From contig NC_068974.1 in the NCBI RefSeq assembly GCF_016808095.1, positions 33,139,090-33,203,089 of the forward strand: a stretch of 64,000 nt of DNA. Direction: 5' to 3'. Positions 2,681-55,576 of this stretch are shown here, in pieces. The DNA is from Vigna angularis. Taxonomy: Eukaryota > Streptophyta > Magnoliopsida > Fabales > Fabaceae. Position 1 is the stretch's first letter, and every line of letters starts with the position of its first letter. Below the pieces are notes generated by a model, which was not told the DNA's origin, ran no database searches, and saw only the letters and a program-made list of their open reading frames with translations. The position numbers were made by a program, and so were the translations under genes.

Positions 2681-2689
2681 TAGACGAGA

Positions 2690-3262
2690 ATGAACAACAA
2701 AAGGCTTGAGAAATCGGAGATAGGGAAAAAGCCAGTGTGTCAACGATGGCAGCCGACCGAGTACCAGGTCAAGATCATGACAAACATCTTCAACTATGGA
2801 AACTATGGAGTCTCTCACCTTAGTCGGACTCAAATTTGTGAGATCACCGCACGACTCAGGGCTTACGGAGAAGCTGGGGAATACAACGTTTACTGTTGGT
2901 TCCAGAACCATGGGAACCGAGTGAGGCATCTACACTCAGAGCTGGACCCTACTGGCACAACATCGTCGTTCTCACCACCCTCGCTGCCGGAAGGTCCACG
3001 TTGGCTTCACAACCGCGGACTCTTTCCCGCAAACAGTGTCATCGGGATAGGAAGGACGACCTTTGGCGCGCTAATGGCAGGGTTGCTTCGGATGAACCTT
3101 TCTCTGGGCGTGAATCTTGTTGCTAAAGAGGAGGATCCTTCCCCTGCGCGGCTAGCTAAGAAAAGAAAGGTTGGGGTAGCTTTCTTTTCCCTGTTTTTGC
3201 TTGAGAGGAATACCTTGAAATGGCATGGGCTTAGGCTCGTTTTCAAATCCGAAAAAAATTAA
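2690..3262 (+). CDS. WUSCHEL-related homeobox (WOX)-like protein, divergent
   Basis: An intronless 190-residue ORF. Residues about 18-82 match the WUS/WOX homeodomain pattern: RWQPTEYQ at the start of helix 1, QICEITARLRAYG across helix 2, and NVYCWFQNH in recognition helix 3. WOX proteins are nuclear transcription factors that control stem-cell maintenance and organ initiation. After WFQNH the usual basic stretch is replaced by GNRVRH, so DNA binding may be altered. A basic KKRK cluster at residues 157-160 could be a nuclear signal. I see no clear WUS box (TLxLFP) and no good EAR motif. The first ATG gives 17 residues before the homeodomain, which is plausible. It shares the unusual YCWFQN with WOX fragments at 18.1, 20.6 and 50.4 kb, implying one expanded lineage. 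It may be a functional gene, a retained retrocopy or a young pseudogene; the homeodomain call is firm, function is not. Confidence 0.65.
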   Translation: MNNKRLEKSEIGKKPVCQRWQPTEYQVKIMTNIFNYGNYGVSHLSRTQICEITARLRAYGEAGEYNVYCWFQNHGNRVRHLHSELDPTGTTSSFSPPSLPEGPRWLHNRGLFPANSVIGIGRTTFGALMAGLLRMNLSLGVNLVAKEEDPSPARLAKKRKVGVAFFSLFLLERNTLKWHGLRLVFKSEKN

Positions 3263-4040: not shown

Positions 4041-6491
4041 TGTAACATCCCAAAAATGCAGTCCAAAACTATATAATAGAATAATCACATTAATTGATAA
4101 TTCAGATCAGTCTTTGCACTAAAAGCCGAACGTACGCTTACGGCCGAACAACCTTACAAAAAGAGTTACCATAAACTATAAAGAATGAGCAAACCTGACC
4201 GAATGATTTACAAAATAAAATACCGAACGGTCATATATAACAAAAAGGAAAGGTGATCGAACGACCACCTTACTATAACTAGACTATCGACCGAACGTCC
4301 TACGGTTCAGTCTTAACTTCAATCTCAACTAGATTTTCTTCTTCCAACGCCTCTTCCAGCAGCTCGTCTCCTTCTGCTCACATCCACAACGGATGATCAT
4401 TGCAATGACAAGACGAATGTACAAAACAAGACAAGACAGGAAATACACGGGATAAGCTTATGTAATTTAATTCAAGTATAAACATACATTTCCACACAAT
4501 CAACACACAAGATATATTTCATCATACGTTTCATATAAATCATAATACTAGACTAACTGTCCGGACTGTATGAAATCTACATAGCTACAGGCGTTCGTGC
4601 ACCCGGGTGGTGTAGTAACTGGGATGCCCTCAACAGCTGCCACCCGAGGTTAGTCCTATCTGTCCAGAGTACCCCTAAGGACTAGGCCTCCTGCTGTTCT
4701 CACACATGACCTATCCTCCTCTACGTGAGGACGAGTACTCACGGAACATCAGGATGAACAGCCAGCTTAGCATGCCCACAGTCATACTTTACAATTTCAA
4801 TAATCATTCATGAGTCGTTCCTCCCTGGAACGCTCGTTCAAATCCACAACATTTCATTCATCTCATATTTTCTTCATCTTTCATTATCAATCTTCTCAAA
4901 TTCATCTTTCATTACCAATCAGTTAAATTCCATCTTTGTTCAAGTATTCTCAAGGACACCCGATACCGAACGTTCAATCCTCACTCAGAATGAGGACGAA
5001 CACTTGGAACGAGACAGAGAAGTCTCCCGTTCCAGAATAGAATAAGACCGAGAGGGTTACTTGTCAGGTTGAGAAAGAAACTGAGTACAACTATATGTCA
5101 CAAGAACGACTAGAACAAACGTTACTTACAAAATGAGTCAATTAAATGAACTGACTCTCGTGAGCTCAAACCAAACACCTCAAAGAACATGTCAAGTACT
5201 AAGGCTCTAGGCCGGAACCAATGAATGTAGACACGTCAAGACATTTAAAGAACAATACTTAGAAGAATTCACATAAAGAAACCTAATGTCAGTCAATGAC
5301 CGAACACGGTAGAGGGAAAATTCTATTGAAGTTGGACGAACACTATTTTCATCAAGATCATACAAGAAACGAGTACGAGCGCTTGGTATAAGACCGAACA
5401 CTACTCATTACGAGCGCTTGGTGTGAGACCGAGCACTACTAAACTTATAAATAGAAAGCTTAATAAATATAATAAGATACTATTGGAATAAGGTTTAAGA
5501 ATAACTAAAATATACAAATACATATATTTACAAAATTTAAGTTTATCACAAAATACTCAGATACAACTACGCTTGGCCGAACGCTCAAGCATAGTATTAC
5601 CACACGAAGACGCTCGTCCTCAACGAGGGTTCTTTCCAAATGAAAGAATCCAATTTTATCCAAGGTTACTAGTATTACCGAACAGTCAATGACCATTCAA
5701 TGACGAACATACATTATCATAGGGAAATTTCATATCCAGGACTCATTTACATAATTTCATAACTTTATAAATTCATATCATAATCATTTTTCATAATTCA
5801 TACAATCCATATCATAGTAAATAATCATATTCCATATAAACAAGCATATCAGCATTCATACTTTATATACATTCAACCACTCAGCAACATGCATTCATTA
5901 TCAACGAACGTACAAACGAACATATAATTAAATTAGATAGACTTACCTTACCTCTGAGCGTGAACGAACGTCCTAGAGACAGAAATACAGTTCGTCTGAC
6001 TACAAATCTTTCTACCCTTGCGTTCCACAATTCTTCAAACTAAACCAAACAATAGAAAACTAATAATGACTCAGACAAGATGACAGCATGCAAGCAGAAC
6101 TTGGTTTGCATGTACCAGAGAACGAACGACTAAAGACAAGGAAACTTACCAGTTCAGAACTCGAAACTGTACGGTTAAAAATGAAGCTCAGGACGCCGGA
6201 AATGCTTCTACGGTGCCTAAACGGTGATCGGAGAAGACAAAAGGTGAGATTTGGTAGAGAGAAGGGAGAGTTTTTAGTGAGAAGGAGGAGAAATGAGAAT
6301 TTCAGAGTTTTGGAGAAGAAGATGCATGCAGAGAGTGTGACGTAAACTTTTCAAAAACTCAGTTTTGCTTAAAACGAACGTCCGCTCATCTGCTGACACC
6401 TGCATTCCACTATCTGATTTCCGGATCACCTCCGCTTGACACCTAGCGTCCGTTCAGAGGGTTTTTGGGTGCGTTTTTAATGGTTCTGACA
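4041..6491 (-). mobile_element. Solo LTR of a Ty3/Gypsy-type element
   Basis: The unit begins TGTAACATCC and ends GGTTCTGACA (TG...CA). It is flanked by the 5-bp direct repeat AAATA at 4036-4040 and 6492-6496, the hallmark of LTR-element insertion. No internal coding region is present, so it is a 2451-bp solo LTR left by recombination between two LTRs. Read on the minus strand it contains GCAATGATCATCC followed by GGATGTGAGCAGA, the same hairpin-plus-GAGCAGA arrangement as the Gypsy LTRs further right, so the sense strand is minus. The word CGAACG is enriched compared with the flanks. A 64-codon-scale open frame inside is not credible as a gene. Confidence 0.85.
4381..4395 (-). other. LTR hairpin (stem CATCC/GGATG)
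   Basis: CATCC-ACAAC-GGATG forms a 5-bp stem with a 5-nt loop between the conserved GATCATTGC and TCTGCTC blocks. It is the counterpart of hairpins in other LTR families of the window. Confidence 0.55.
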
Positions 6492-6496
6492 AAATA

Positions 6497-7512
6497 TAAT
6501 TACTATTTCTTATAATTTTACTTTTTTTAAATATAGATATTATTCTTATATAATAAAAATTACAAAACAAAAGATAAAAAGTAAAAACAATAAAAAAATA
6601 TAATAAAATAATAAATAACGGTGTGAGTACTCGTGCGATCGTCCGCATCAGTCTAGTACTTATTACCCTCCACATAAATAAATATCAGTACGAGTACTCG
6701 TGCGATCGTCCGCATCAACCCAATACTTATTACCCTCAACATAAATAAATAACAGTATGGATACTCGTGCTATCGTTCACATCAGCTTAATACTTATTAC
6801 CCTCAACATACATAAATAATGGTGTGAGTGCTCGTGCGATAATTGACATTAGCCTAGTGCTCATTACCCTCAATTTATCAATCATATCCAAATACAAAAA
6901 ATATAAAATATCCAAAAATATCAAATTGTCATACAAGTAACCTAGGATAGAACTATGTGATCTTTGATTCTCTACCAAAAAAGGAGATACGTAGGACCAA
7001 GGTTAATCCTTGTCAGGTTCATTCCCCTAAAAATCAAAAGTTTCCCTTAATATCCAAGTCGTTCTAAAAAATCATTTCAAAGTAGAGTTCCAATGAAGAG
7101 TTTCCAAAAAGAACTATGTAACCCTAATTTCTCATGTTGAATGAGAATACGTAGGAGCAAGGTCAATCCTTGTCGGGCTTCCTAAAATAAACAAAAAACA
7201 TTTTTTGTTCTTCTGTGTTGTCTTATATCGTTATTTTCAGGAAAAATAACCATTATGAAAACCACATCAACTTTGCACAATTAATTAAAGTTATTGTCTT
7301 CGGAGGGCGTTGTAGGGTGCTAATACCTTCCCTACACGCAACCGACTCCCGAGCTCAAAAAATCTGATTTTCGTAAACCATGCCTAATTTTATGGTTTTT
7401 TCCGTAGTTTTTCAGAATAAACTATGATGGAGACTCTAAACTCTGATTTTAAATCGTTTGTCATTTTTTCGTACGGTTCGTCAGCTTCCTCGTCGAGATC
7501 CCGGTTACGACA
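6497..7512 (-). mobile_element. Ogre/SNARE-like LTR fragment
   Basis: On the minus strand the unit starts at 7512 with TGTCGTAACCGGGATC and continues with GGGAGTCGGTTGCGTGTAGG and GGTATTAGCACCCTACAACG. The same blocks occur in the solo LTR starting at 18138, which is oriented the opposite way. Tandem repeats lie at its far side (6605-6870). Its left end is interrupted by the solo LTR at 4041-6491 and I cannot find its own terminus. It truncates the viral replicase copy to its right. Membership of the legume Ogre/SNARE (Tat) group is inferred from the TGTCG(C/T)AACC start and internal blocks. Confidence 0.65.
6605..6870. repeat. ~75-bp tandem repeat, about 4 copies
   Basis: Units contain CTCGTGCGATCGTCCGCATC followed by a block like TACTTATTACCCTC. 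They diverge progressively. The position inside the LTR matches a different tandem array in the related LTR at 18.8-19.2 kb. Confidence 0.8.
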
Positions 7513-7690
7513 GATGATTAGTCGCAACCTCATACCCATCAAAGTACGTTGAAATAGTAGAATTACTCGAAAAAGCTAAGGCGTACATATCCTGAATAGC
7601 TTGAATTTCTCCCACATCAGGTACTACAAAAACATTATTTGAGAATACTATTTCCTCATACTTAGACCCACACCGTCATTTGTTACCTTC
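7513..7690 (-). pseudogene. Endogenous RNA virus: segment between helicase and polymerase
   Basis: The minus strand encodes a short open stretch ending in a stop near 7513, containing VPDVGEIQAIQDMYALAF then SNST and FDGYEVATNH. This resembles the conserved segment just before the polymerase palm in alpha-like plant viruses, where a tyrosine, a GNST-like turn and an acidic position are spaced similarly. It suggests that the ancestral protein continued from helicase into RdRp. The rest of the polymerase is absent because an LTR begins at 7512. The match is by eye and short, so this part is less secure than the helicase. Confidence 0.5.
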
Positions 7691-7693
7691 TTC

Positions 7694-9015
7694 TTACAAG
7701 TGATTCATCATTTTTTCTTCTTGCAGTTGCATCATATCAGAAATGTCACAGAATAACTTGTCTTCTGCCTTTGTATAATATACCAATGACCTTCTGTGTC
7801 GAATCGTACCGACAACAATGTACGGGTTAGATTTACGCCCACCAGAATATATTTCATTCTCGGTTGCTTTCAATCTCACCAACACGACATCATTGTAAGT
7901 TTTTCCCTAATTTTCATGTACTGTATTGACACCCTAATTATCATGACCCAAATATCTCAATACATCATCTTTCTCAGCCTGAGTAAATGTCAAATAGTGC
8001 ACTCCTTCAGTCTTAGGTATGCTATAAATGAGCTCATTCCACTTCTCGGTCCAAACACTTTCATAGAATTTACCAAAGGATTAACACTCATCACCAGAGA
8101 ATTACCATAAAACAATTTCTTAGTTAAATATGCAACAACACCTAACGGAGATCTGCAAGTAAGTCTTTTTTTTACTGTATTAGAAATCTGCAACTCACTG
8201 TAACGAAGGTTAATAGCTTCAACTCTATTCACAAAAGGAATTTGTTGAGAATCTCCCTGACACACTACAATGCGAGCAGATAACATGTCAACACAAAAAT
8301 AAACCATTCCTGCATGAACCATCGGAGCTTCATCAAAATGTAAAACGTTAGCGCGTGATCTTCCATCATTCAAAAAGAAAGAGTCGACAGTTCTGACTCT
8401 CTTCAACTGTGCCTCAATCGCTTTCCTTTCTCTTTTAAATCTCTCTTTAAGGTCCATTGTTGCTTCTTTTCCCATTGTCAATACATATTGTTTATCTAGT
8501 GAAGCCTCTTTCACAGTATGAGTAGATTTTCCACAGCTAGGTACACCATCAGTTAGTGTCGCATTGGGCATGTGTTTATGTTTACGCTCAGTCAATGCAA
8601 CTTTCAAAACCTTTAAGATCTCCATTTCATTCATCAAAAAAGTGTGATCACAAACCATAAACAATCCATTCTTAGATTCTGTGAAATTTGGAACGTCGAT
8701 CTTCAAACGATCTTCAGAGTCCTTTCCCCAAAATAATCGTACCAAAGTAGCCCCACTTTTATACGTTTCTAAGTCAAACTTAATTGCATACATATGACCC
8801 AATGTCCTCGATTTTTTGAATTCCCAACGAACATTCCCTTTGACCACCCGAAAGAATCCTGCGTTCTTCTGGAAAGTACCCTCAGATTCATGATACATTC
8901 CGTAAGCATATTCCCTAATAATATCCATCATCGTGGATTTATCAGAGATGATTTTACACTGCAAATACCACAAGTATTCTTTCTTTGCTTTAGTAGCAAA
9001 AGTTTCATCAGCCAA
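7694..9015 (-). pseudogene. Endogenous RNA virus: superfamily 1 helicase
   Basis: A 341-residue open frame (7990-9015, minus) carries the order of motifs expected of an alpha-like virus SF1 helicase: Walker A GVPSCGKST (residues 157-165), Walker B/motif II FDEAPMVHAG (227-236) and motif III GDSQQIPFVNR (254-264). Motif VI appears in the next frame as GTIRHRRSLVYYT (7694-7885). These enzymes unwind RNA and cap viral transcripts on membranes in the cytoplasm. Breaks: a frame change near 9010-9030 relative to the linker, then another frame change and two in-frame stops between about 7990 and 7886. One of those stops falls where motif V normally carries glutamine. This is therefore a non-functional genomic fossil. 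The motif set fits plant Martellivirales (Bromoviridae-, Virgaviridae- or idaeovirus-like); the genus cannot be fixed from sequence reading alone. Confidence 0.88.
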
Positions 9016-9778
9016 TGCATCACGTCTAGCGGCAATTTAGCGTAACCCACCAACAACGCATCCAAGTGTTCTACATCTTTCCTCTTACTTTCAGCTAATT
9101 CAGACTCTTCAGCCATTGAAGCCCAAGCTTTCCCTCTCTTTTCATCATCACTACTCTCATCTGAATTTGAAGAACTACCAACCTCAAAAGTTACAATAGC
9201 TACTTCTTCCACTAATTTCCCTATTTCATTTCCAGTTTCCTGCTTAAGTTGGTTTTCCTCTTCAGAATTTTCCACGTCAGACACCTCAGATCGCATTTCA
9301 GTATTCTCTTTCGCTCCTTGAGATTCCTCAGCTTTTAAATCTTTCTCTTGAGTGTCAACAACCTCTATATCATTGTACCTCAAAAACACATAGTCTTCAC
9401 CCTTCAAACTGTTTACAATGGATTTCACACAACTTTTAAGGAAAGTGATCAAATCTCGTGACTCAATTTCCTTATTCGATTGCCTAAAGAAGTCTCCTTT
9501 CATATATTCGACCAACAAATCTGCATCTACTGTCGACTTTCCTTTAAACTCTTCATTCACATATGTATCAATTAACGATTGTTTCAACTCAGGTTTCTTC
9601 TCTTGTTTCTCTTTCACGGGTTCAACAGTTAATTCACCATTCAGCCTTTGGTTAACCACAGAATCCACCATTTCTTTTCTCTCTCTCATACTCTTCGTAC
9701 AATACGGATTTTTCTTCCAAATCATTAAAGTCCATTACAAAGCTCTCATCCAATGACTTCTCTGCCCATAGTCTGATC
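9016..9778 (-). pseudogene. Endogenous RNA virus: acidic linker between methyltransferase and helicase
   Basis: An open frame (8928-9725, minus) runs into the helicase region from upstream. It is rich in Glu, Asp and Ser, for example SDVENSEEENQLKQE and SSSNSDESSDDEKRGK, as expected for a disordered hinge. Near 9665-9690 the reading appears to change frame within an A-rich run, and the frame to the right then runs without a stop up to the Copia boundary at 9778. No catalytic motif is visible. The linker is unusually long and acidic, which may help place the virus. Confidence 0.7.
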
Positions 9779-10279
9779 TGTAAGCTTTTCTTTAATTTTC
9801 AATTAAATGAAAACAACACACAGGATCTTGAATTTTCATGATACTCACTATTTTCTCATACACAGTAAAGAAGAACTAACCTGGGTCCATTGTGCACTTC
9901 TTCCTGTCTCTTCCTGTGAAATATTCTCTCTCCTCTTACTCCTCCTTAATGCCTTCTTGATGATATAGAAGTTGTAGGATGGTTTTCTCTGTCAGTTTCT
10001 CTTCTTTCCTGAGAACGTTATGTTCTCTATATCTCTTCAGAAACTTAATGTATCACCAGAAGTAAAACTTTTTCCTCTTTTATGATATTTTAATTAACTT
10101 TAATAAAATACCAAAATGCCCTTTTGGAGTGAGAAGAGAGTGATTAACTTTAATAACTCTAAAATAATCCCAATAACTTTAATACTTTAATACTCTAATA
10201 ATCATCACATTAGAATCCTTACATTAAAGGTATACTTTAAATTACATGAACCAATGTAAATTATTAATATAATTTAACA
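9779..10279 (-). repeat. Copia 3' LTR
   Basis: A 501-bp repeat starting TGTAAGCTTTTC and ending AATTTAACA, matched by the copy at 15919. It has one fewer TCTCTTCCTG unit than its partner. Confidence 0.95.
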
Positions 10280-10292
10280 TTCTCCCACTTGG
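10280..10292 (-). promoter_or_regulatory. Copia polypurine tract
   Basis: Minus-strand CCAAGTGGGAGAA lies immediately inside the 3' LTR. It is the expected primer site for plus-strand DNA synthesis. Confidence 0.85.
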
Positions 10293-10648
10293 TTCATGTG
10301 ATGACTTGAAGATCTAAAATAAACTTTAAGTGCGCACCATTCATTAGAATTATCAAGTCATCATCCTTATATGAATTGAAATAATCGGATCATGGCGGGC
10401 AAAAGTCATGATCGACAAGATTCCTTCCATGTATCACATAATCAAAACAACTCAACATAAGTTTAATCAATCTTATAACTTTCATGTCTCTAAAGGAGAC
10501 CTATCATGTCATCACAATCAATAATACATGTATATAATTTAATGTGGATAACAATAGAATAAAGAGAAACATAACTTTAATTGAATTCACAAGTGTCATG
10601 ACAGTACAAGCATATAACTATACATATCTATATAGATAGATAACAACA
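10293..10648. other. Copia 3' untranslated internal region
   Basis: Non-coding AT-rich DNA between the end of the RNase H frame and the polypurine tract. No separate feature is seen. Confidence 0.7.
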
Positions 10649-13174
10649 TCATGTTAACATTGACTTATCCATAATGCCCATACTTTCAACATGGCCAATA
10701 AAAGTTTTGGGCGGTAGTCCTTTAGTTAACGAATCTGCTATCATCAAATCCGTACCAATATGCTCAATTAACACTCTATGTTTCTGCACTTCTTCTTTGA
10801 CTGACAAGTACTTCAAATCCATGTGTTTAGCACCCTTTGAGTACTTATCATTTTTAGAGAAGAAGACGGCTGCGGAATTATCACAATAAATCCTTATCGG
10901 CCTAGCTATACTGTCAATAATGCCAAGCCTCGATACAAAGTTCCGCAACCACAAGGCATGAACTGTGGCCTCAAAGCATGCCACGAATTCAGCCTCCATG
11001 GTGGAAGTAGCAATGACTGATTGTTTTGCACTTTTCCAAGAAATTGCTCCTCCAGCCAAAAGATAGACATACCCAAATGTGGATTTTCTTGAATCCACAC
11101 ACCCAGCATAGTCTGAATCCGAATAGCCAATCACTTCGAGATGATCTGACTTTCTATAAGTGAGCATGTATTCTTTGGCACCTTGTAAGTACCTAAGAAC
11201 TTTCTTTGCAGCTTTCCAGTGATCCATTCCGGGATTACTTTGATATCGGCCTAACATTCCAACAGCAAAACTGATATCTGGCCGAGTACAAGTTTGAGCA
11301 TACATCAAACTCCCAACCACTGACGCATAAGGAATAGACTCCATGGCCTTTCGTTCCAAATCATTCTTGGGACATTGCATTTGACTAAACTTGTCTCCTT
11401 TCTGAATTGGAACTACTCCAGGAGAACATTTTTCCATTCTGAATCTCTCTAACACTTTATTAATATAGCCTTTTTGAGACAAACTTAACAATCCTTGTGA
11501 TCTATCACGGAATATTTCTATTCCTATCACATAAGATGCCTCATTCATATCTTTCATTTCAAAGTTGTTAGAGAGAAACTTCTTTACATCATGTAACATA
11601 CCAATATCATTAGCAGCAAGAAGAATATCATCAACATATAGAACCAAAATAACAAACTTACTCCCACTGACCTTTATGTATATACACCGATCAACGGTGT
11701 TCTCTACAAAACCATACGAAGTTATGATATCATTAAATTTTAGATACCATTGACGGGAAGCTTGTTTTAGTCCATATATTGATTTCTTTAATTTACACAC
11801 TAGATTTTCTTTTCCTGTTATGGTGAAACCTTCTGGTTGGTCCATATAAACTTCCTCTTCTAAGTCACCATTCAGAAAGGCGGTCTTTACATCCATTTGG
11901 TGAAGCTCTAAATCATAATGAGCCACCAAAGCCAAAACAATTCTCAAAGAGTCCTTCTTAGAAACAGGAGAGAAGGTCTCTTTGTAGTCAATGCCTTCCT
12001 TTTGAGTGAAACCTTTGGCGACTAATCTAGCTTTATACCTTTCAATATTGCCTTTTGAGTCATGTTTAGTCTTAAAGACCCATTTACAACCGACTCTTTT
12101 TGAACCCTTAGGCAATTCAACTAGATCCCATACTTTATTGTCATCCATTGATTTCAACTCTTCTTTCATAGCATTCAACCAATTCTCTGAATTATTACTT
12201 TCCATGGCTTGTCTGAAAGAGACTGGATCCTCATCAATGCTTAAGTCACATTCATGTTCAACAGAGTAAACCACATAATCATTCGAAATAGCAGGTCTTT
12301 TCTCCCTTACAGACCTTCTTAATGCTGCTTCTTGTGGTTCCTCTATCAATTGCTCATTTATGACTTGCTCATTGTCAACTGGCTCAACATTTATATGTTC
12401 ATTTTGTGGGATTGGAACATTAATTTGTTGTCTCTGCTTGTTGTGTGACTGTGATACAACAAGAGGGATAACAACTTCAGAAGAGACATTAGATGTAGAA
12501 ACACTATCAGTATGCTCTTGAATGTCCACTATTCGTGATTCCTCACTCCCACTAAATTGACCATTTTCAATGAACCGAGCATTTCCAGACTCAACTATTC
12601 TTGTACTATGGTTAGGGCAATAAAATCTATATCCCTTTGACTTTTCAGGATAACCGATGAAGTAACCGCTAATGGTTCTTGCATCAAGCTTCTTTTCATG
12701 TGGATTATATAACCTTACCTCTGCCGGACAACCCCAAACATGAAGATGTCTCAAACTGGGTTTCCTTCCAGTCCATAGTTCATAAGGAGTTTTAGAAACT
12801 GCTTTGCTAGGAACCCTGTTAACCAGATATACAGCAGTCTTTAATGAATACATCCACAAAGATAAAGGGATATTACTATGACTTAACATACTCCTAACCA
12901 TATCCATAAGAGTACGATTTCGTCTTTCTGCTACACCATTTTGTTGTGGTGTACCGGGCATTGTATACTGTGCACATATACCCCGACTTTCAAGATACTT
13001 TGCAAATGGACCTGGACATTGTCCACTCTCATCCGTTTTACCATAATATTCAACACCTCTATCAAATCTCACCACTTTTACTTTTCTATCTAATTGCCTT
13101 TCCACCTCATTTATGAACACCTCAAGGGCATTCACTGATTGAGATTTTTCATGCAATAGATATATATATAACAA
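10649..13174 (-). pseudogene. Copia polyprotein: integrase C-part, reverse transcriptase, RNase H
   Basis: An 841-residue open frame. Residues 36-90 carry the second Asp and the Glu of the integrase triad ([10 protein letters not shown] and [11 protein letters not shown]). RT spans about 350-595 with GCKWVFKTK, the [13 protein letters not shown] block and the catalytic LYVDD (512-516). RNase H follows with [15 protein letters not shown] and CDNSAAV. The frame is intact and catalytic residues are present, so decay is limited. Its start is artificial: the integrase begins in another frame (13132-13728) and the two meet at a TA repeat near 13160. The enzyme would copy element RNA into DNA in virus-like particles and the integrase would insert it. 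Confidence 0.92.
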
Positions 13175-13728
13175 TAACGTGAGAAATCATCAATAAAGGA
13201 GATAAAATATTTTTCACCACTCCAAGATTTAATGTCAAAAGGACCACAAATATCAGTGTGTATTAACTCAAGAAGTTGACTGCTTCTTGTGGCGGGATTC
13301 TTTGATATGTGTTTTGTTTGTTTACCCTTAATACAATCAATACATACATCCCAGTCATCAAAATCCAATTGAGGTAAAATTTCACTCTTTACTAACCTCA
13401 ACATCCTTTCTTTGGATATGTGACCCAATCTTTTATGCCATAAGAAAGCAGAACATTCCTTTCCTGTACTAGAATTTCTATCAACAACATGTTCAACATT
13501 AAACAGGGATTCAGAAAAATTAACATCAAGATTTAAACGGTATAAACCATCCAATAATGTACCAGAACCATAATAGTAAGAAAGTTTATACAAATGAAAA
13601 ATACCATTTTCAATCCTAAAGTTAAAACCTAAACAATCCAACTTTGCAACAGAAATCAAATTCCTAGCACAACCAGGAACATAGAGACACTTTTCAAGAT
13701 TCAGACAATAACCAATGTCTAGAATCAA
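13132..13728 (-). pseudogene. Copia integrase N-terminal part
   Basis: A 198-residue frame with the GAG-pre-integrase region (HKRLGHISKERM), zinc-binding Cys pair (CIDCIKGKQT) and the start of the integrase core with its first Asp (HTDICGPF). It ends in [10 protein letters not shown], where an expanded TA microsatellite (about 13157-13172) shifts the frame relative to the rest of the core. The frameshift is likely a microsatellite length change and the only break between integrase and RT. Confidence 0.88.
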
Positions 13729-14016
13729 TCTGTAAGTCCCAATTCCTTCTATTCATGCCTTCATTCTGTTCCCCATATATAAATACTTTTCAGTTCCTTT
13801 TATGGGCTGGATTGAAAGGAATCCCTGCATAATATTAGAAACATGAGTAGTAGCTCCAGAATCCAACCACCAGGTATTATTAGGCACTTCAACTATATTT
13901 GCTTCAAAACTTACAGAAACATAAAAAGTACCTTTCTTTTCGAACCAAGATTTTCTTTTCGGACAATCTTTCTTGAAGTGACCTACTTTCTTGAAAAAGA
14001 AACATTTCTGGTCCTT
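13729..14016 (-). pseudogene. Copia zinc knuckle and protease, broken
   Basis: Between gag and integrase the minus strand encodes a nucleocapsid knuckle in which the expected second Cys reads Phe (KCFFFKKVGHFKKDCP). The aspartic protease motif LDSGATTHVS follows. A stop separates gag from the knuckle and another interrupts the stretch before the integrase frame. The missing Cys probably destroys zinc binding. Confidence 0.75.
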
Positions 14017-14763
14017 CTAGATACCGCCCTTATTCACTTTCATTGGGGCTTTGTCCTTCTTGTTCTTCTTTCCTGATTTACCTTTACTGAAGCTAGCACC
14101 TTCATGAGTTGTGAGATGGATAGAATGATCTCTCATTTTCTTTAATCTCCCTTCCTCTTGTACCAACATGGCTTTGATTTCTTGGAAGTTCCACTTATCC
14201 TTAATAGTGTTATAATTCACTTGGAACTGGCCAAATTCAGGAGGAAGAGAGTTCATGATGAACTGTACTAGAAAAGACTCATTCACCTCCATTCCCATTG
14301 ACTTCAATCTTGCTGCTATATTTGCCATTCCAGTTACATGTTCATGTATGGGCTGTGACCAGTCAAACTTTTTGGTAGTCAGCTCACTCATAAGAGTTCC
14401 CACAATAGACTTGTCAGTTATGTCTGATTGTGAATACTCCTTGATCATTTTCATGAATTCCTTTGCGTTTTCCGTTTTGGGCATGGAAGGCTTTACGTTC
14501 TCTGCCATAGACATGCGCATCAAGTTTAATGACAACCTGTTAGACCTATGCCAAGTCTCATAAAGAGACTTTTCATCACTTGTACTGGTCTCTGTAATGG
14601 CTGCGGGCATTTCATCCATCACAATAGCCATATCCAAGTCTAGAACACCCAGTTGGAACTGGATTTGTTCTGACCAATCGGCATAATTGAGCCCATTAAA
14701 CTTGATGACATTGTTGCTTAAACCTGCTAAATTCATGTAAGCTGAAATAATACACAAGCTCAT
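14017..14763 (-). pseudogene. Copia gag (UBN2-type)
   Basis: A 248-residue frame with the copia gag pattern: FNGLNYADWSEQIQ near the N terminus, YETWHRSNRLSLNLM, and a lysine-rich C terminus (SGKKNKKDKAPMK). It ends just before the zinc knuckle. Gag forms the virus-like particle. The ATG at 14763 is the first in frame; translation may begin a few codons further in, at MNLAGLSNN. The stop after NKGGI cuts gag from pol. Confidence 0.85.
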
Positions 14764-15904
14764 ACATCAATGCTTTGATTAAATTTAATGGATTCAAACA
14801 AATTACTACACTAGTCATACATTCAAGTTCACCTTTGGGTGACACTTAAACTGATAGGTAGTCAATAAAGTCATTCATTTAAGTTCACCTTTGGGTGATT
14901 CTTAAACTGACAAATTTCATATATATACTTTAATAAACAATCAATCATACTTAAGACTATATGTATGCTATCTTTGGATATACAAACATATACTAAGTAC
15001 ATGAAATGTTTCACTTTAATGTCATCAATTATAAACCATGGTTCACCTTTGGGTAATCCATAACATCCTTACATCAATGACTAATTACTCTCCGAAATTC
15101 AACATAATTGAATTTCCTTCTTCCAAAATATATAATTCATAAAACAAAATTATATCATGCATGTACTTTTCAAATTAAAAGTATTTGAAACTTTAACTTT
15201 TAATTCACAATTAATTTGCATTCAATGCATAACAATGTTAAAATATACATGAGCACAAGAACACTGCCGCAACAATAAAGTTGCTTCCAAAATAGAAAAT
15301 AGAATTCCATATTTGAATTTCCATATTAGAATTTCCATTCAATGCAGTAACAATTACTATGTTTACAATATAATAATAATATAAATTGCAAAAAGTATAT
15401 TGCTTTACTGCGGAACCAGACAAACTTTTTGCTTTAAAATTAAGTTGCTTTAATTCAATAATGAATAAAAAGTAAACAAAATTGCAAATTCATGTGAATT
15501 GTTTCTATCATTCAGAATTCACTTTACGCAAGGAAATTGACTTTTCTATCATGCAGAATTAACTTTGGCATATTGCAACAGTAGGGTTATTTTAACGTGA
15601 TGATCAAAAATTAAAACGTACGACTTCGAAATTCACGATACAGTGAATTGTAACAATCATGCAACAATAAAATTGCTTTTAAACTTTCGGCTTCTAGGGT
15701 AAAATTCACGTTAAAGTGAATTGAATTTTCTTCCATCAATAGACCAATTAAAAAAAAAACGTATGGCTTCCGAGATTCACACAGTACAGCGAATTTAATT
15801 CTTTCATGCCAACAAATATAAAATCCCTAAATTTTATAATTCAAAAAGTTAGGGTTTTAAATTTTGGGAATATTACCAAGGAGAATCATAAAATTCAGAA
15901 CCTT
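14764..15904 (-). other. Copia 5' leader
   Basis: About 1.1 kb of non-coding AT-rich leader between primer site and gag. The phrase TTCACCTTTGGGTGA recurs near 14830 and 14884, with a partial third copy near 15045. No separate gene is seen. Confidence 0.7.
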
Positions 15905-15916
15905 GCTCTGATACCA
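15905..15916 (-). promoter_or_regulatory. Copia primer-binding site (tRNA-iMet)
   Basis: Minus-strand TGGTATCAGAGC lies two bases inside the 5' LTR and is complementary to the 3' end of plant initiator methionine tRNA. Confidence 0.95.
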
Positions 15917-15918
15917 CT

Positions 15919-16429
15919 TGTAAGCTTTTCTTTAATTTTCAATTAAATGAAAACAACACACAGGATCTTGAATTTTCATGATACTCACTATTTTCTCATA
16001 CACAGTAAAGAAGAACTAACCTGGGTCCATTGTGCACTTCTTCCTGTCTCTTCCTGTCTCTTCCTGTCAAATGTTCTCTCTCCTCTTACTCCTCCTTAAT
16101 GCCTTCTTGATGATATAGAAGTTGTAGGATGGTTTTCTCTGTCAGTTTCTCTTCTTTCCTGAGAACGTTATGTTCTCTATATCTCTTCAGAAACTTAATG
16201 TATCACCAGAAGTAAAACTTTTTCCTCTTTTATGATATTTTAATTAACTTTAATAAAATACCAAAATGCCCTTTTGGAGTGAGAAGAGAGGGATTAACTT
16301 TAATAACTCTAAAATAATCCCAATAACTTTAATACTTTAATACTCTAATAATCATCACATTAGAATCCTTACATTAAAGGTATACTTTAAATTACATGAA
16401 CCAATGTAAATTATTAATATAATTTAACA
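15919..16429 (-). repeat. Copia 5' LTR
   Basis: A 511-bp partner of the LTR at 9779, with an extra TCTCTTCCTG unit near 16045-16070. Apart from that and a few substitutions the two are identical by eye. Confidence 0.95.
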
Positions 16430-17242
16430 TGATCCTATCATTCACTTCAGCAAACATAGGACAATCTTCAATTCTCAACACTGTTTCACCATTCATAAAC
16501 TTAATCCAACTTGCAAACTGTTTTACTGCCTTATGATATAAACTCGTTTTCCCAAATACTCTCGCTACCATTATCCGCACAAGGTCACTCAAAGCAACTT
16601 CTTCTTTCACTCGATCCCTCAACTTATCGATAATACTTTTTTGTTTTTTCTTCTACATCTCTATGTATACTAGTAATGTAGTGGTTATGCCAACCAATTT
16701 CCTAGGATCTACTTTTTCTTACACTTTTCTCGCAGAACCACCCAAAATCACAACATTATTTGTAGGTTCTAAATAACTGATCACTGTTTCCGGTGTTATT
16801 TGATTGTCCTTTAATCTACACACGTACTCTAAAGCACAGTGCACAAAATCCCGAGGTAAAATCTCCTCATCAAAGAATATTTCTCGAGTTCTAGCATCCA
16901 AATCAAACATAGGAAATACTACTTTGTTCTTCGCGTCAATCGGCAAATACTTTACTAACTTATCAAATTTAACACCCATAGCTCTTGCCTCACTCGCGTC
17001 AGTCAAAGAAATAAAAACAACATCACCCCTAATACTGTGGGCAACAAACCTTTTTTCTTTCCCATCAACATTTCCACAGAGAACAAAAAAGAACCTACAA
17101 ATTTTTGTATTTTCTTTTTTCTTTAAGTATTTACCAAATCATAAACATCTACATCATAAATACTGTGAATGTCCATAGCTACTGCTATTTTATCGTCTCC
17201 TCCCAAAGAAGAAGGTTCAAAAACAAAGTTTTCAAATATGTT
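16430..17242 (-). pseudogene. Endogenous RNA virus: C-terminal half of methyltransferase region and linker start
   Basis: Minus-strand frames at 16719-17006 and 16392-16622 (the latter running into the Copia LTR after 16430) hold viral sequence such as GVKFDKLVKYLP and PRDFVHCALEYVC. Just upstream, about 17020-17230, AMDIHSIYDVD resembles the conserved block late in alpha-like virus methyltransferase domains. Several frame changes and stops separate these pieces. The last frame continues on the far side of the Copia element without a stop, showing that viral integration came first. Confidence 0.75.
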
Positions 17243-17851
17243 CTAAAAAAAATTTCTCTCGTTCATATCCTTAGGATTATTGTGACTTTTACTTAAGTTG
17301 CAAGATATCTCTCGATTATCTTCTTCTACCATTTTAGCCTTGTCAACCACGTCCCTTCGCAAAGTCACAGATTCTTCCACATATTTCTTCAAGTTGAGCA
17401 TACGATTCATTTTCCTCTGTGCATCACGAAAATCTAACAACGAATTACAACAATGAACACGCCGATTCTCTTCGCTCTTCACATGAGTTTCCCAGTTTCC
17501 ACCAATATCACATATCATAACATCTTTGGGAAAATTTGATATTTTGAGTTTCTGTTCAATTTTCCGCATAGCATCCGCCATGTTGTGCGTTCCTCTTTCA
17601 CTTGAAGAAGTATAAATACTCCATTCGGGGAAAAGTTCACTTAACAGTTGCAATTGCTCTTCACTTATGTTCCTCTTCGCATTGATTTTTGTTTTCTTTT
17701 TTTGTTTATCTAATTCATGTTTCAATTGATCTCCAATTACATTACACATTACATTGTGTAAAGCTGAGTTCGTTCTACTTGCACGTGTGTGTAACACCGG
17801 ATTACGAATCTCCTCCGACTATAACTTAGCTAATATGTTCAAATTTGCCAT
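17243..17851 (-). pseudogene. Endogenous RNA virus: methyltransferase N-terminal part
   Basis: A minus-strand frame (17243-17797) carries the hallmark block DIGGNWETHV followed by RVHCCNSLLDFRDAQR. It matches the conserved His, Asp-Ile-Gly-Gly and Cys-Cys...Asp-x-Arg-Asp pattern of the alpha-like virus methyltransferase (Vmethyltransf), which caps viral RNA at membranes. In the same frame an ATG lies at 17851, giving a probable original start, but a TAG follows nine codons later. Length from that start to the motif fits a near-complete N terminus. Together with the helicase this is a 1a-like or polyprotein-type replicase. Confidence 0.85.
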
Positions 17852-18050: not shown

Positions 18051-18137
18051 TAGTTAAAGATGTGGTGATGGTGCTTTGCTTCAAGCATCGTTGCTTTTCA
18101 CGATACCCATAATTTTGAAACCAACAATAAACGCTAT
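18051..18137 (-). pseudogene. WOX-like homeobox, C-terminal half (split gene)
   Basis: The minus strand encodes VYCWFQNYGYREKQR, the recognition helix of a WOX homeodomain. The sequence stops abruptly at 18137 where a solo LTR begins, and the first half of the homeodomain resumes at 20553. The GCTAT duplication straddles the LTR. After the homeodomain the frame runs on into low-complexity codons. Confidence 0.85.
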
Positions 18138-18769
18138 TGTCGCAACCGGAATCGCGACGGGACGACGATCCAAAAAAAGGAAAACCGGGTTTGAAAAAAG
18201 ATATTGGAGTCGCCACCATAGTTTATTCTGGAAAACTACGGAAAAACCACAAAATGATAAGGCATGGTCTGCGAAAATGAGATTCTAAGTTCGGGAGTCG
18301 GTTACGTGTAGGGAAGGTATTAGCACCCTACAACACCTGCCCTAAGGCAGTACCTTTTACTAAATATGCGAATATGATGTGGTTTTCAAAATGTTTAACT
18401 ATCCCCTAAAATAAAACTCTAAAGAAACAAAATATATTTTTTTAGTTTTTTGGGCCCGACAAGGATTGACCTTGCTCCTACGTATTCCCATTCAGAATGA
18501 GAAATCAGGGTTACGTAGTTCTTTTAGAAACTGCTTGAAAATTTTGTTTGAGGAATTGTTTAAGAGATTTGTTTGAGAAATTGATTGTGGATAAATTTGG
18601 ATTTTTGGGGAAGTGAACCTGACAAGGACTAGCCTTGCTCTTACGTATCTCCACTTTTGATGGAGAATCAAGGATCACGTAGTTCTGGCTGAAAGACTGA
18701 TTATTGTTTGAAGATGTGAATGTTTTATATTTTGGTATTTTTATGTGAGAAGGAGAAAATGTTTTTTAG

Positions 18770-39659: not shown

Positions 39660-40200
39660 AAATTCTTGGGGAAACAAGAAGTTGAATCTGGTAGAGCCGG
39701 TTAGACAACTTCCCATCCTTCCAAAAATACAATATAAATAAGGAAAACAAAAAAATCTGGGGAAACAAGAAGTTGAATCTGAAAGAGTCGGTTAGACAAC
39801 TTCTCATCCTTCCAAAAATACAAAATAAATAAATAAGGAAAGCAATAAAAAGTTTGGGGAAACAAGAAGTTGAATCTGGCAAGGCCGGTTAGACAACTTC
39901 TCATCCTTCCAAAATACAATATAAATAAATAAGGAAAGCCGTAAAAAGTTTGGGGAAACAAGAAGTTGAATCTGGCAAGGCTGGTTAGACAACTTCTCAT
40001 CCTTCTAAAATACAATATAAATAAATAAAGCCGTAAAAAGCTTGGGGAAACAAGAAGTTGAATCTGGCAAGGCCGGTTAGACAACTTCTAATCCATCCAA
40101 AAATACAATATAAATAAATAAGGAAAGCCGTAAAAAGTTTGGGGAAACAAGAAGTTGAATCTGGCAAAGCCGGTTAGACAACTTCTCATCCTTCCAACAA
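39660..40200. repeat. ~97-bp hairpin minisatellite, 6 copies
   Basis: Each unit holds AGAAGTTGAATCTGGC, a short loop, GCCGGTTAGACAACTTCT and a TTCCAAAAATACAATA spacer. The flanks AGAAGTTG/CAACTTCT are perfectly complementary. Confidence 0.93.
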
Positions 40201-40837
40201 TACAAAAGAAGCAACTAATAACATACAAATAGCATAACATAATCAATATCGCATTTTACAACTATCAAACTTGGATCTCCTCACAGAAGCATGTTCTTAT
40301 TCAAAATTCAGATCATACTGAAACAAAATGCTTCGTATTCAAGATTTAAGATCAAACAAAAGCAAAATATTACATATTCAAGACTCAGGATAATACAAAA
40401 CAAAAACTTAAGAGTAACTCCCCTTACCTCTATTCCAGACTTAATCTTCTCCATAGAAACCGTTCTCCGGAAACTTCCAAAATTTTACCCTTGCAACTAG
40501 AATTTCCTCCAACTCTCTTCTCTCAAAATTTCTCTCAATTTTTGGTGCAAATTTTCAGCCTCCCCCTTGGCTATTTATAGCAAAAAAATTTACTATTCAT
40601 TTTTACTATTCATTTTAACTATTCATTTTTCTATTCATTTTACTATTACAAAAATAATTTTTTATTCACAATTTGATGAATTCTGATCTCTTATGACCCA
40701 AGGCAACGTGGAATATTTATCTCTTCCACAAATTATATATTTTTTTACTATTCACTTTTTACTATTCACAATTTACTATTCACTTTTTACATTTTTAATC
40801 TAGTATCTGAATTACAAATATTTTTAAGGGTCTTACA

Positions 40838-40855
40838 TTTGTCATTTTGCAATCA

Positions 40856-40951
<96 letters not shown>

Positions 40952-41010
40952 ATTATTATTATCATTATTATTATTATTATTATTTTTATTGGACTTTACA
41001 AAATGACAAA
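40838..41010. repeat. Palindrome spacer with (AT)n
   Basis: The 173-bp centre between the inverted family C LTRs. It starts TTTGTCATTTTGC and ends CAAAATGACAAA, with (AT)n at about 40859-40948. The GGACTTTACA piece inside is the terminus of a family B LTR. Confidence 0.85.
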
Positions 41011-41639
41011 TGTAAGACCCTTGAAAATATTTGTAATTCAGATACTAGATTAAAAAAAAAGTAAAAAGTGAATAGTAAATTGTGAATAGTAAAAAAAATA
41101 TAATTTGTGGAAGAGATAAGTATTCCACGTTGCCTTGAGTCATAAGAGATCAGAATTCATCAAATTGTGAATAAAAAAATATTTTTGTAATTGTAAAATG
41201 AATAGAAAAATGAATAGTTAAAATGAATAGTAAAAGTGAATAGTAAATTTTTTTGCTATAAATAGCCATGGGGAGGCTGAAAATTTGCACCAAAAATTGA
41301 GAGAAATTTTGAGAGAAAAGAGTTGGAGGAAATTCTAGTTGCAAGGGGAAAATTCTGGAAGTTTTCGGAGAACAGTTTCTAAGGAGAAGATTAAGTCTGG
41401 AATAGAGGTAAGGGGAGTTACTCTTAAGTTTTTGTTTTGTATTATCTTGAGTCTTGAATATGTAATATTTTGCTTTTGTTTGATCTTAAATCTTGAATAT
41501 GAAGCATTTTGTTTCAGTATGATATGAATTTTGAATAAGAACATGCTTCTGTGAGGAGATCCAAGTTTGATAGTTGTAAAATCCGATATTGATTATGTTA
41601 TGCTATTTGTATGTTATTAGTTGCTTCTTTTGTATTGTT

Positions 41640-42180
41640 GGAAGGATGAGAAGTTGTCTAACCGGCTTTGCCAGATTCAACTTCTTGTTTCCCCAAACTT
41701 TTTACGGCTTTCCTTATTTATTTATATTGTATTTTTGGAAGGATGAGAAGTTGTCTAACCGGCTTTGCCAGATTCAACTTCTTGTTTCCCCAAACTTTTT
41801 ACGGCTTTCCTTATTTATTTATATTGTATTTTTGGAAGGATGAGGAGTTGTCTAACCGGCTTTGCCAGATTCAACTTCTTGTTTCTCCAAACTTTTTACG
41901 GCTTTCCTTATTTATTTATATTGTATTTTTGGAAGGATGAGAAGTTGTCTAACCGGCCTTGCCAGATTCAACTTCTTGTTTTTCCAAACTTTTTCCGGCT
42001 TTCCTTATTTATTTATATTGTATTTTGGAAGGATGAGAAGTTGTCTGACCTGCCTTGCCAGATTCAACTTCTTGTTTCCCCAAACTTTTTATTGCTTTCC
42101 TTAATTATTTATATTGTATTTTTGGAAGGATGGGAAGTTGTCTAATCGGCTCTGCCAGATTCAACTTCTTGTTTCCCCAA
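41640..42180. repeat. ~97-bp hairpin minisatellite, 6 copies
   Basis: Mirror of the array at 39660-40200. Overlapping repetitive open frames here are by-products of a unit length near a multiple of three. Confidence 0.93.
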
Positions 42181-50139: not shown

Positions 50140-50785
50140 AAAGATCCAACGTCACCTTAGCTGGAACCGACAACGCTATCCATGAAAGATCTCCAAATAA
50201 ATAAAAATATAAATGTTAAAATAATAATAATAAATAAATAAAAGTAAAAAAAAATACGACATAATTTATCATTCATAAAAGGTGGCAAGGGGGTAATGGA
50301 GAGTAAGATGTGGTGATGGTGCTTTGCTTCAACCATCGTTGCTTTTCACGATACCCATAATTTTGAAACCAACAATAAACGCTATACTCTCTAATTTCCC
50401 CATAAATTTTAAGTTTCGTTGCAATCTCGTGCACATGCTCCCTATTTGGATTTCGTATCCCAAATGCAAAAAGGGCATCTAGTAGAGTAACTTATTCTTT
50501 AGTAGGACTCCATCGTTTATATCCCAACTTGTCTTGAACTTCCAAATATTTTAAATTTTTGTTCATTTTTCTAAGAGACAAAATTGAAAGAATATTATGT
50601 TTGTGTCAAAGAGGGTTGATACAATTAGTTTTCTTTTAACTCAATTTTATCCACAATCTAGTTTGAAGTCTAGTCTAGATGTATCCTCTGGTCCTCGCAA
50701 AAGATCTTAATAGATCTAAGTCCAACAAGTTTATATCCATGATTTGTTTAAGTTAAAATAATTTTTAGGGTACGTAGCATTGTTC
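50140..50785 (-). pseudogene. WOX-like pseudogene with uninterrupted homeobox (empty site)
   Basis: From an ATG at 50566 the minus strand encodes a full WOX homeodomain: YKRWSPTKE, a TAA stop at 50492-50494, then LLDALFAFGIRNPNRE, KLKIYGEIREYSVYCWFQN and YGYREKQR. The site of the 18138-20552 insertion is intact here (~50385), proving that insertion and its duplication. About 220 bp of upstream sequence is shared; the promoter part is absent. Beyond the homeodomain, at 50121-50204, a short GC-richer segment could be a further exon, but I do not recognise it. Confidence 0.85.
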
Positions 50786-50997
50786 AAAATTATGTAGTTT
50801 TCAAAATGTTATTTTCTTCGAAAATATCAAAATCTAGAGTACCGTAGTTCTTTTTAAAATATATTTGAAAATGATTTATAAATTGTTTAAAAATTTTATG
50901 AAAAATTTTGGATTTTTTTTGGAGGTGAACTTAACAAGATCATTTGTTATGTATTTCCACTTTTGATGAAGAATCAAAAGTCACGTAGTTCTTACTT
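50786..50997 (+). mobile_element. Ogre/SNARE-like LTR fragment
   Basis: GGTGAACTTAACAAGAT and CACTTTTGATGAAGAATC match the interior of the 18138-20552 LTR (18600-18690). It abuts the Gypsy RT directly. Confidence 0.6.
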
Positions 50998-53657: not shown

Positions 53658-54435
53658 TGTAAGACCCATATAAAATATTTAAATTTAATAAATAGTTGTT
53701 TTTTTTTATTTTTATAAAGTTAATAAAAGTATGGTAAAAAAAAATTAAAATTTATGATAGGTAACAATAATAATAATTTCAAATGAAGGAGTTTAAAAAT
53801 TTGAGAATTTATTTTAAGAGTTAAAAAAAATGAATAGTAAATAGTAAATAGTGAATAGTGAATACTGAATACTGAATAGTTAAAAAAAAATATATTAAAA
53901 TAATTTGTGGAAGAGAACACTCCACGTAGAATTAATCATTCAGAGATAAGAATGATGAATAAAAAATAATTTTTGAATAGTAAAAATGAATAGTAAAAGT
54001 GAATAGTAAAAATGAATAGTAAAAATGAATAGTAAAAATTTTTGGCTATAAATAGCCAAGGGGGGGAGGCTGAAGATTTGCACCAAAATTCTAGAGAAAT
54101 TGTGAGAGAAGAAGAGTTTGAGGAAATTCTAGTTGAAGAGGGGAAATTCTGGAAGTTTCCGGAGACCGATTTGAGAAGAGGAAACTAAGTCTGGAATAGA
54201 GGTAAGGGGAGCTAACTTTGAGTATTCCTTTTATATTATCTTGAGTCTTGAATATGCTATATTTTGCTTTTGTCTGATCTTAAATCTTGAATATGGAGTA
54301 TTTTGTTTCTGTATGATCTTGAATTTAAATGAGAGTATGCTTTTGTGTTGATATCCAAGTGTGATAGTTGTAAAATGTGATGTTGATTATGTTATGCCAT
54401 TTGTATGTTATTAGTTGTTTATTTTTGTATTTTGG

Positions 54436-54975: not shown

Positions 54976-55576
54976 TTTTATATTAAGATTATTTTTATGA
55001 TTGTCAAATATTGTATTCTTATATCACCATTTATAGTAATATTTTATTATTGTTAATTGTTTATAATTATCTTGTATGAATTCTATTATGAATGTTTATT
55101 GTGATGTTTGATATGAAATTATTCATTTGAAATATAGTATGAGTCTCGGGGAGAGACTCTAAATTGGCATGGTATTAGTGTATATGTTGATGTTGAGGAT
55201 CCTGTTGTTGGTGGTGATCCTAAAACTCTAATAATTTTCCAGTCTCAATTAGAGAAGGATGTGTTATGTGGTGAGAGTAGTAGGAGGTCCTAGTCTATGT
55301 TTATAGACATTAATGGATTAACCTTGTGGGTGATATGATATATTCTATTTGGCCAAAAATTTTGTTGTTGAAATCACCACAAGTGCATGACCACCCGAGA
55401 CTTCCATCAACATTATATCCGGATAATAGAGTCTAGTATGATAATTGCATCTTACTAGAATTTATGGTGAATGTATTACGTATAATAATAGTGTCATGCT
55501 TTTCTTTGAACTTTGCATGGTAGCTCACCCTTACTTGTTTGTTTGTGCCGGGAAAATCTTTTTTTTTTGCGATGAT

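What the first reader, a model, noticed from the sequence alone, without database searches (positions are those of the whole stretch)
7513..17851. Endogenous positive-strand RNA virus replicase fossil
Minus-strand pieces carry an alpha-like virus methyltransferase block (DIGGNWETHV, RVHCC...LDFRD) and, in the right order, a complete set of SF1 helicase motifs (GVPSCGKST, FDEAPM, GDSQQIPF, IRHRRSLVYYT), with a long acidic linker between. A plant nuclear genome normally lacks such genes and RNA viruses do not integrate as part of their cycle. Stops and frameshifts show long residence. This looks like a virus of the Martellivirales whose closest relatives I cannot name.
Basis: partly seen in the sequence, partly recalled or inferred. 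Interest (0 to 1): 0.88.

Follow-up and report, generated by a model that had tools for sequence, protein, structure and literature searches.

The report
Pomovirus-like replicase fossil in adzuki bean
A broken DNA copy of the replication gene of a potato-mop-top-like RNA virus sits in a bean chromosome, split by a younger jumping gene; a second, better preserved copy of a related virus lies elsewhere in the genome as an inverted repeat.

Summary
Observation confirmed; interpretation supported. On the minus strand, 17851 to 7513, lie decayed pieces of a plus-strand RNA virus replicase: methyltransferase (PF01660, PF08456), acidic linker, SF1 helicase (PF01443), TGA-CGG, and a short stretch beyond. 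The relatives can be named: pomoviruses (Virgaviridae) such as Beet virus Q, PMTV and BSBV. The host is adzuki bean (Vigna angularis) or nearly identical. A second locus (contig C6) carries the same gene from a related virus, with a 956-aa open frame and a palindrome of 2.35-kb arms. The copies differ mainly at third codon positions (214/169/450 over 886 codons), so they most simply parted as viruses: two integrations. A third locus holds cucumovirus 2a-like fragments. This is an endogenous viral element, a known kind; my paper searches showed no pomovirus case. Protein function is unlikely; hairpin siRNA production at C6 is possible but untested.

The parts
17849..17851 (-). ATG at the place where residue 1 of the BSBV replicase aligns
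   Evidence: tblastn P0005 residue 1 at 17851; codon read by eye from the sequence printed
17027..17851 (-). N-terminal methyltransferase block (PF01660), 3 in-frame stops
16425..17033 (-). second methyltransferase block running into Vmethyltransf_C (PF08456), 2 in-frame stops; about 51 residues are missing before it relative to BSBV
9779..16429 (-). Ty1/copia LTR retrotransposon inserted inside the PF08456 part (gag, integrase and RVT_2 matches)
15919..16429 (-). 5' LTR of the copia element
9779..10279 (-). 3' LTR of the copia element; 3 substitutions in 502 aligned bases and one 10-bp length difference against the 5' LTR
9774..9778 (.). target-site duplication TGATC (other copy 16430-16434)
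9673..9780 (-). replicase sequence resuming after the copia element: the C6 copy's residue 254 is matched on both sides (16431 and 9777)
9048..9671 (-). acidic linker between methyltransferase and helicase, 208 codons without a stop
7990..9036 (-). helicase region, 348-aa stop-to-stop frame with motifs GVPSCGKST, FDEAPM, GDSQQIPF
   Evidence: PDB 3vkw 8.6e-22
7679..8029 (-). C-terminal helicase block in another frame, 3 in-frame stops
7673..7678 (-). TGA-CGG directly after the last aligned replicase residue, also present in the C6 copy; a readthrough context of this virus group (recalled)
7513..7672 (-). short stretch past the stop that still aligns with the C6 copy down to 7520 (about 75% nt); in C6 this leads into the polymerase domain
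6553..7512 (-). left flank: diverged copy of high-copy repeat R starting TGTCG..., 74-78% to 15 fetched copies (outer end approximate)
18138..18744 (+). right flank: another copy of repeat R in the opposite orientation

Best explanation
An endogenous viral element. A DNA copy of the first coding part of the replicase RNA of a pomovirus-like virus (start codon to just past the readthrough stop) was inserted into a chromosome of an ancestor of adzuki bean, probably by a retrotransposon's reverse transcriptase acting on viral RNA followed by end joining (inferred, not shown). It most likely has no protein function now. It gathered stops, frameshifts and a deletion, is bounded by high-copy repeats, and was later split by a copia element. 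A second, independent integration of a related virus on contig C6 became a palindrome.
For: Domains in viral order. C6 helicase 60-67% to Beet virus Q, PMTV, BSBV, Colombian potato soil-borne virus, Soil-borne virus 2 and BBNV; named furoviruses 50-54%, pecluviruses 46%. Window helicase 48-57% to the same six, furoviruses 42-45%. Window and C6 are sisters, 100/99, in one fork with the PMTV/BSBV/Beet virus Q rows (87/94; 82/93). Exact copia insertion with target duplication. Host DNA on both sides within a 41-Mb contig and matching V. angularis gene models P0001, P0002, P0032. Third-position excess 214/169/450 over 886 codons, largest in each of 7 blocks.
Against: No polymerase hit of this virus at the window locus and no coat hit in the genome (where no positive control rang); other segments were not otherwise tested. 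A clade of the pomovirus rows with the two copies is not a branch of the best tree, though not rejected (p-AU 0.37), and the placing fork is not strongly supported. The integration mechanism is not visible: the left edge is the start of a repeat, the right edge lies near an AAT microsatellite. PF01443 also rings in 9 of 14 prokaryote controls, so the helicase family alone is not specific; PF01660 and PF00978 ring in 0 of 14. Three scans of viral contigs found no relatives.
Confidence: 0.93

Rival explanations
1. Contamination or misassembly: an infecting virus's cDNA was built into the assembly.
For: RNA-virus sequences can enter assemblies; one earlier plant report (CMV in Medicago) was not confirmed by PCR (PMC3136472, section 12 read).
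Against: Stops, frame changes and a deletion; a copia insertion with target duplication inside the viral gene; V. angularis gene models on contigs of other lengths match the loci: P0001 identical in 207 of 208 and 328 of 345 columns, all differences lying at its exon edges; P0002 and P0032 reach into the flanks of the minus and plus copies at C6.
Confidence: 0.02
2. One integration, later duplicated inside the genome; both copies were long kept as domesticated host genes, the window copy then decayed and C6 was retained.
For: Both copies are sisters in the tree; C6 has an intact 956-aa frame; a low dN against dS would also arise between two long-maintained host genes.
Confidence: 0.04
3. The copies are kept because transcripts, above all from the C6 palindrome (2.35-kb arms, about 1.2-kb spacer), fold into dsRNA and give siRNAs against related viruses.
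For: Inverted arms 98% identical, 9 differences in 1621 nt of the coding part; the cucumovirus fragment at C6:625 kb also has 546-bp identical inverted arms; soybean precedent: inverted CMV RNA1 element giving 22/21/24-nt siRNAs (review PMC6256188, passages read).
Against: No transcription or small-RNA data here; no inverted viral copy was seen at the window locus itself; the arms may simply be young (about 0.4 My at a recalled rate of 6.5e-9).
Confidence: 0.15
4. Plant cellular helicase or methyltransferase genes.
For: PF01443 also matches in 9 of 14 prokaryote controls.
Against: Viral methyltransferase domains PF01660 and PF08456 in colinear order, viral best hits, viral stop context.
Confidence: 0.005

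Closest known systems
Pomoviruses (Virgaviridae): Beet virus Q, Potato mop-top virus, Beet soil-borne virus, Broad bean necrosis virus (genus labels recalled)
   Same: Methyltransferase, PF08456, acidic linker, SF1 helicase in colinear order over the whole first replicase ORF; TGA after the helicase; 48-57% identity of the window helicase piece to these four
   Different: DNA in a chromosome, broken frames, no polymerase hit at the window locus, no coat hit in the genome (no positive control)
CsFRLS1, betaflexivirus replicase-like sequence in cucumber (Chiba et al. 2011, PMC3136472, abstract, section 12 and passages read)
   Same: 5' half (Met-Hel) of a plus-strand RNA virus replicase in a plant chromosome, with a retrotransposon-like sequence nearby
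   Different: Other virus family, other host; here two integrations and a copia element nested inside the viral gene
Soybean CMV RNA1 element (Da Fonseca et al. 2016, known here only through review PMC6256188, passages read)
   Same: Like the C6 locus: replicase-gene element as an inverted repeat with a spacer
   Different: Cucumovirus RNA1; siRNAs shown there, untested here; no inverted repeat at the window locus

Membership tests
Endogenous non-retroviral RNA virus element | Closest relatives are virus proteins | tested here: met
Endogenous non-retroviral RNA virus element | Embedded in host chromosomal DNA on both sides | tested here: met
   C5:33139090-33203089 of a 41-Mb contig, high-copy host repeats on both sides
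Endogenous non-retroviral RNA virus element | Present in another assembly of the species | tested here: met
   P0001, P0002, P0032 of V. angularis on contigs of 30.8 and 31.7 Mb; the assemblies themselves were not compared
Endogenous non-retroviral RNA virus element | Marks of residence in the genome | tested here: met
   8 in-frame stops in the six BSBV-aligned blocks, frame changes, a deletion, a nested copia element
Endogenous non-retroviral RNA virus element | PCR or long-read proof in plants | not testable with these tools
   no reads or plants
Genus Pomovirus | Replicase clusters with pomoviruses | tested here: met
   87/94 with Beet virus Q, PMTV, BSBV, Colombian potato soil-borne virus, Soil-borne virus 2 and one unnamed row; support not starred, and BBNV lies outside the fork
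Genus Pomovirus | Readthrough stop between helicase and polymerase | tested here: met
   TGACGG in window and C6; PF00978 follows in C6 (minus copy 5.3e-13; plus copy 1.5e-5, under the cut-off); that pomoviruses use such a stop is recalled
Genus Pomovirus | Tripartite genome with TGB and rod-type coat protein segments | tested here: inconclusive
   PF00721 0 hits, no positive control rang; the 4 PF01443 hits are the replicase copies; TGB2/TGB3 families not searched
Hairpin siRNA element (soybean CMV type) | Inverted repeat of the viral sequence at the window locus | tested here: not met
   all tblastn matches of six viral replicases in the window lie on the minus strand, none repeated inverted; present at C6 only
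Hairpin siRNA element (soybean CMV type) | siRNAs from the locus | not testable with these tools
   no small-RNA data

The most novel reading that the evidence does not exclude
Adzuki bean holds a set of plus-strand RNA virus fossils (two independent pomovirus-like replicases and one cucumovirus 2a). Two of the three loci found are inverted repeats, which may act as natural hairpin sources of antiviral siRNAs, so that legumes repeatedly turned captured replicase genes into RNAi loci.
Probability: 0.15. Interest if true: 0.75.

Novelty: new member of a known kind. Interest (0 to 1): 0.5.

Why it matters
It adds a virus group (pomoviruses, soil-borne viruses carried by plasmodiophorids, as recalled) to those known to have left copies in plant chromosomes, with two captures by one host lineage. 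It gives a rough age for pomovirus-like infection of Vigna ancestors and offers a defined palindrome (C6) in which to ask whether captured replicase genes feed plant RNA interference. It also suggests that three annotated 'hypothetical proteins' of V. angularis (P0001, P0002, P0032) are viral fossils, not ordinary host genes.

Tried and rejected
Close relatives in IMG/VR: helicase pieces of window and C6 and the cucumovirus-like polymerase piece, 3 scans, no relatives. The shared flank repeat R looked at first like a terminal inverted repeat of an element carrying the virus; dropped, because R is a high-copy repeat (1583 first-look candidates, 40 scored; the 39 besides the query's own place are 91-94% identical) with a sharp start TGTCGCAACC. 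In the 15 fetched copies (one is the window's own right-hand copy) there are about ten different upstream contexts; L027-L029 share one, and L023, L024, L030 and L031 have similar ones. Whether R-left cut the virus later or was there first is unresolved: it is 74-78% to all 15, and a genome search with R-left did not complete. Idaeovirus origin of the third locus was my first guess; one search showed cucumovirus 2a. YN00 dN/dS failed in 6 of 7 blocks; NG86 dS was undefined in 3 of 7. My first codon-position count (217/171/458 over 902) met 16 residues twice where blocks overlap; the corrected count is 214/169/450 over 886. Movement protein PF01107 was asked once and not answered.
Full report
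What is there. On the minus strand of the window, between 17851 and 7513, lie colinear pieces of an alphavirus-like replicase. Pfam matches are PF01660 (1.9e-20) at 17243-17818, a weaker PF01660 piece at 16719-17138 (3.7e-4, under the cut-off), PF08456 (4.1e-19) at 16392-16652, PF01443 (4.8e-21) at 7990-9036 and 1.4e-4 at 7694-7906; the linker 8928-9734 and 7390-7575 match nothing. By sequence the helicase piece matches 4 solved structures, all viral, best 3vkw at 8.6e-22 (the entry says 'Replicase large subunit', tomato mosaic virus is recalled). tblastn with Beet soil-borne virus replicase P0005 (1270 aa) covers residues 1-280 at 17851-17027, 332-534 at 17033-16425, 531-566 at 9780-9673, 788-818 at 9125-9030, 817-1153 at 9036-8029 and 1155-1270 at 8026-7679. 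Residue 1 falls on an ATG (17851-17849, read by eye), and directly after the last residue stands TGA CGG. So the fossil spans the first ORF from end to end, with the deletion named below, plus about 160 nt.

Decay. In the BSBV matches there are 3, 2, 0, 0, 0 and 3 in-frame stops in order along the gene, with frame changes between blocks and about 51 residues missing near 17030. The linker at 9048-9671 is 24% acidic, as in four pomoviruses (21-25%).

The nested copia. 9779-16429 is a Ty1/copia element (RVT_2 2.4e-80, gag_pre-integrs 3.7e-16, copia-type gag 3.2e-19). Its LTRs differ by 3 substitutions in 502 aligned bases and one 10-bp length difference. It is framed by TGATC on both sides, and residue 254 of the C6 frame is matched on both sides of it. 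With recalled rates (6.5e-9 to 1.5e-8 per site per year) it inserted about 0.2-0.5 My ago.

Host. A predicted V. angularis protein (P0001, LR48_Vigan08g146600, 529 aa) matches the window in 207 of 208 columns over 9671-9048 and in 328 of 345 over 9018-7993; the differences lie in the last column of the first match and the first 23 columns of the second, that is at exon edges of the gene model. The window is C5:33139090-33203089 of a 448-Mb assembly with 33 contigs. The host is V. angularis or something almost identical.

Other copies. A search of the whole assembly with PF01443 gives 4 matches: 2 in the window and 2 on C6 near 1.89 Mb. PF01660 gives one match in the window and one on C6. PF00978 gives 5 matches: one at the same C6 locus and 4 near C6:625 kb. 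The C6 plus copy has a 956-aa stop-to-stop frame (L008:818-3688) with PF01660 positions 182-308, PF08456 and PF01443, a TGA CGG, and then the start of PF00978 (1.5e-5, under the cut-off; in the minus copy 5.3e-13). Its stretch 12065-14411 (offset from 1880000) repeats inverted at 10834-8486, 98% identical over 2353 columns. In the coding part the arms differ at 9 of 1621 nt, spread 4/3/2 over codon positions; beyond the frame they differ at 27 of 726; the minus copy has one in-frame stop. P0002 and P0032 (Vigan09g006300 and 006400) reach into the flanks of the minus and plus copies, so the inverted pair is also in the other annotation.

Which virus. With the C6 helicase piece as query, 33 proteins among 2460 candidates pass 1e-5, 3 of them V. 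angularis: Beet virus Q 67%, PMTV 66%, BSBV 66%, Colombian potato soil-borne virus 65%, Soil-borne virus 2 63%, BBNV 60%; named furoviruses 50-54%, pecluviruses 46%, gentian ovary ringspot virus 41%, hordei- and tobraviruses 39-41%, a tobamovirus 32%. Genus labels are recalled. The window helicase gives nearly the same ranking at lower identity (BSBV and Beet virus Q 57%); with it as query in the protein search only P0001 came up, among 1445 candidates limited by length. In a 20-row helicase tree, from which I left out 12 of the 32 rows of the first tree (distant, short or near-duplicate ones), window and C6 are sisters (100/99) inside a fork with Beet virus Q, Soil-borne virus 2, BSBV, PMTV, Colombian virus and one unnamed row (87/94). 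BBNV falls outside that fork; clades of the pomovirus rows and P0009 with or without BBNV are not rejected (p-AU 0.37 for both). The first tree with 32 rows had long tobamovirus branches and gave the same sister pair. I call the source pomovirus-like, not a member of the genus, because the other segments were not seen.

Two integrations. Over 886 aligned codons, summed block by block, window and C6 differ at 214 first, 169 second and 450 third positions (chi-square against equal thirds p 2.3e-36; the third position leads in each of 7 blocks). NG86 dN is 0.13-0.27 in 6 blocks and 0.55 in the linker; dS is 1.0-2.5 in 4 blocks and undefined in 3. Most of the divergence therefore arose under selection for a working protein, most simply while both were viruses. 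The window branch is longer (0.34 against 0.07), as expected of the older, decaying copy. From 5 stops in the C6-alignable part a neutral K of 0.042 follows (95% Poisson range 0.014-0.098), about 2.8-6.5 My by the two recalled rates; from 8 stops in all conserved blocks K 0.052 (0.022-0.102), about 3.5-8 My. No stop in 956 C6 codons bounds its K below 0.024, or 3.7 My at 6.5e-9. These dates are rough.

Flanks. Left of 7513 and right of 18138 stand two copies, in opposite orientation, of a repeat R. Pieces of the same repeat stand beside the C6 copy. R is very common in this genome (1583 first-look candidates, 40 scored) and begins sharply with TGTCGCAACC, so shared R flanks do not show shared descent of the two viral copies. 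R looks like an LTR-type element end; this is inferred.

Third locus. C6:625193-626576 holds polymerase pieces in both orientations with 546-bp inverted arms at 100% identity and 163-bp identical direct repeats further out. One polymerase piece is 84% identical over 85% of its length to a CMV 2a fragment.

Literature. Chiba et al. 2011 (PMC3136472; abstract, section 12 and passages read) report the cucumber CsFRLS1 Met-Hel element. The table of a 2019 review (PMC6908805, part 1 of section 7 and passages read) lists no Virgaviridae element in plants. PMC6256188 (passages read) describes the soybean CMV RNA1 inverted repeat with siRNAs. A search for 'pomovirus' with 'endogenous viral' gave 2 papers. 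In PMC6520822 (passages read) the one mention names Pomovirus in describing a coat-protein Pfam family; the other, an aphid virome paper, was seen only as a listing. In PMC12548735 'pomo', 'Virgaviridae' and 'Vigna' do not occur in the main text. The other searches (mostly seen as listings with the start of abstracts) showed no pomovirus case. The library lacks most subscription journals, so absence from print is not shown.

Function. No evidence supports a protein function for the window copy. A hairpin-siRNA role is structurally possible for C6 and unproven.

Noticed in passing
L014 (G000:C6:620001-630000), about 5160-6675: Cucumovirus 2a-like polymerase fragments in both orientations, 546-bp inverted arms 100% identical, flanked by 163-bp identical direct repeats.
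   Followed up: partly
G000:C6:1888486-1894411 (L007/L008): Second pomovirus-like replicase element with an intact 956-aa frame and a 2.35-kb palindrome.
   Followed up: yes
2684-3262 (+); 18057-18137 and 50305-50385: Weak homeodomain match at 2684-3262 (22.8 bits, cut-off 22.9). An 81-bp piece occurs twice, 98.8% identical, and by eye reads like the end of a WOX-type homeobox on the minus strand.
   Followed up: partly
39701-42145 and 54374-57026: Arrays of short repeats whose frames stay open over several units (..SCLTGSARFNFLFPQTFYCFPYLF..), in both orientations.
   Followed up: no
61538-62025 (-): Another in-frame repeat array (..GPNPFIGISTLCKVIGRAQS..).
   Followed up: no
51003-53613 (+): Ty3/gypsy-like polyprotein pieces (RVT_1 6.9e-34) directly beside a piece of repeat R (50830-50992).
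   Followed up: no
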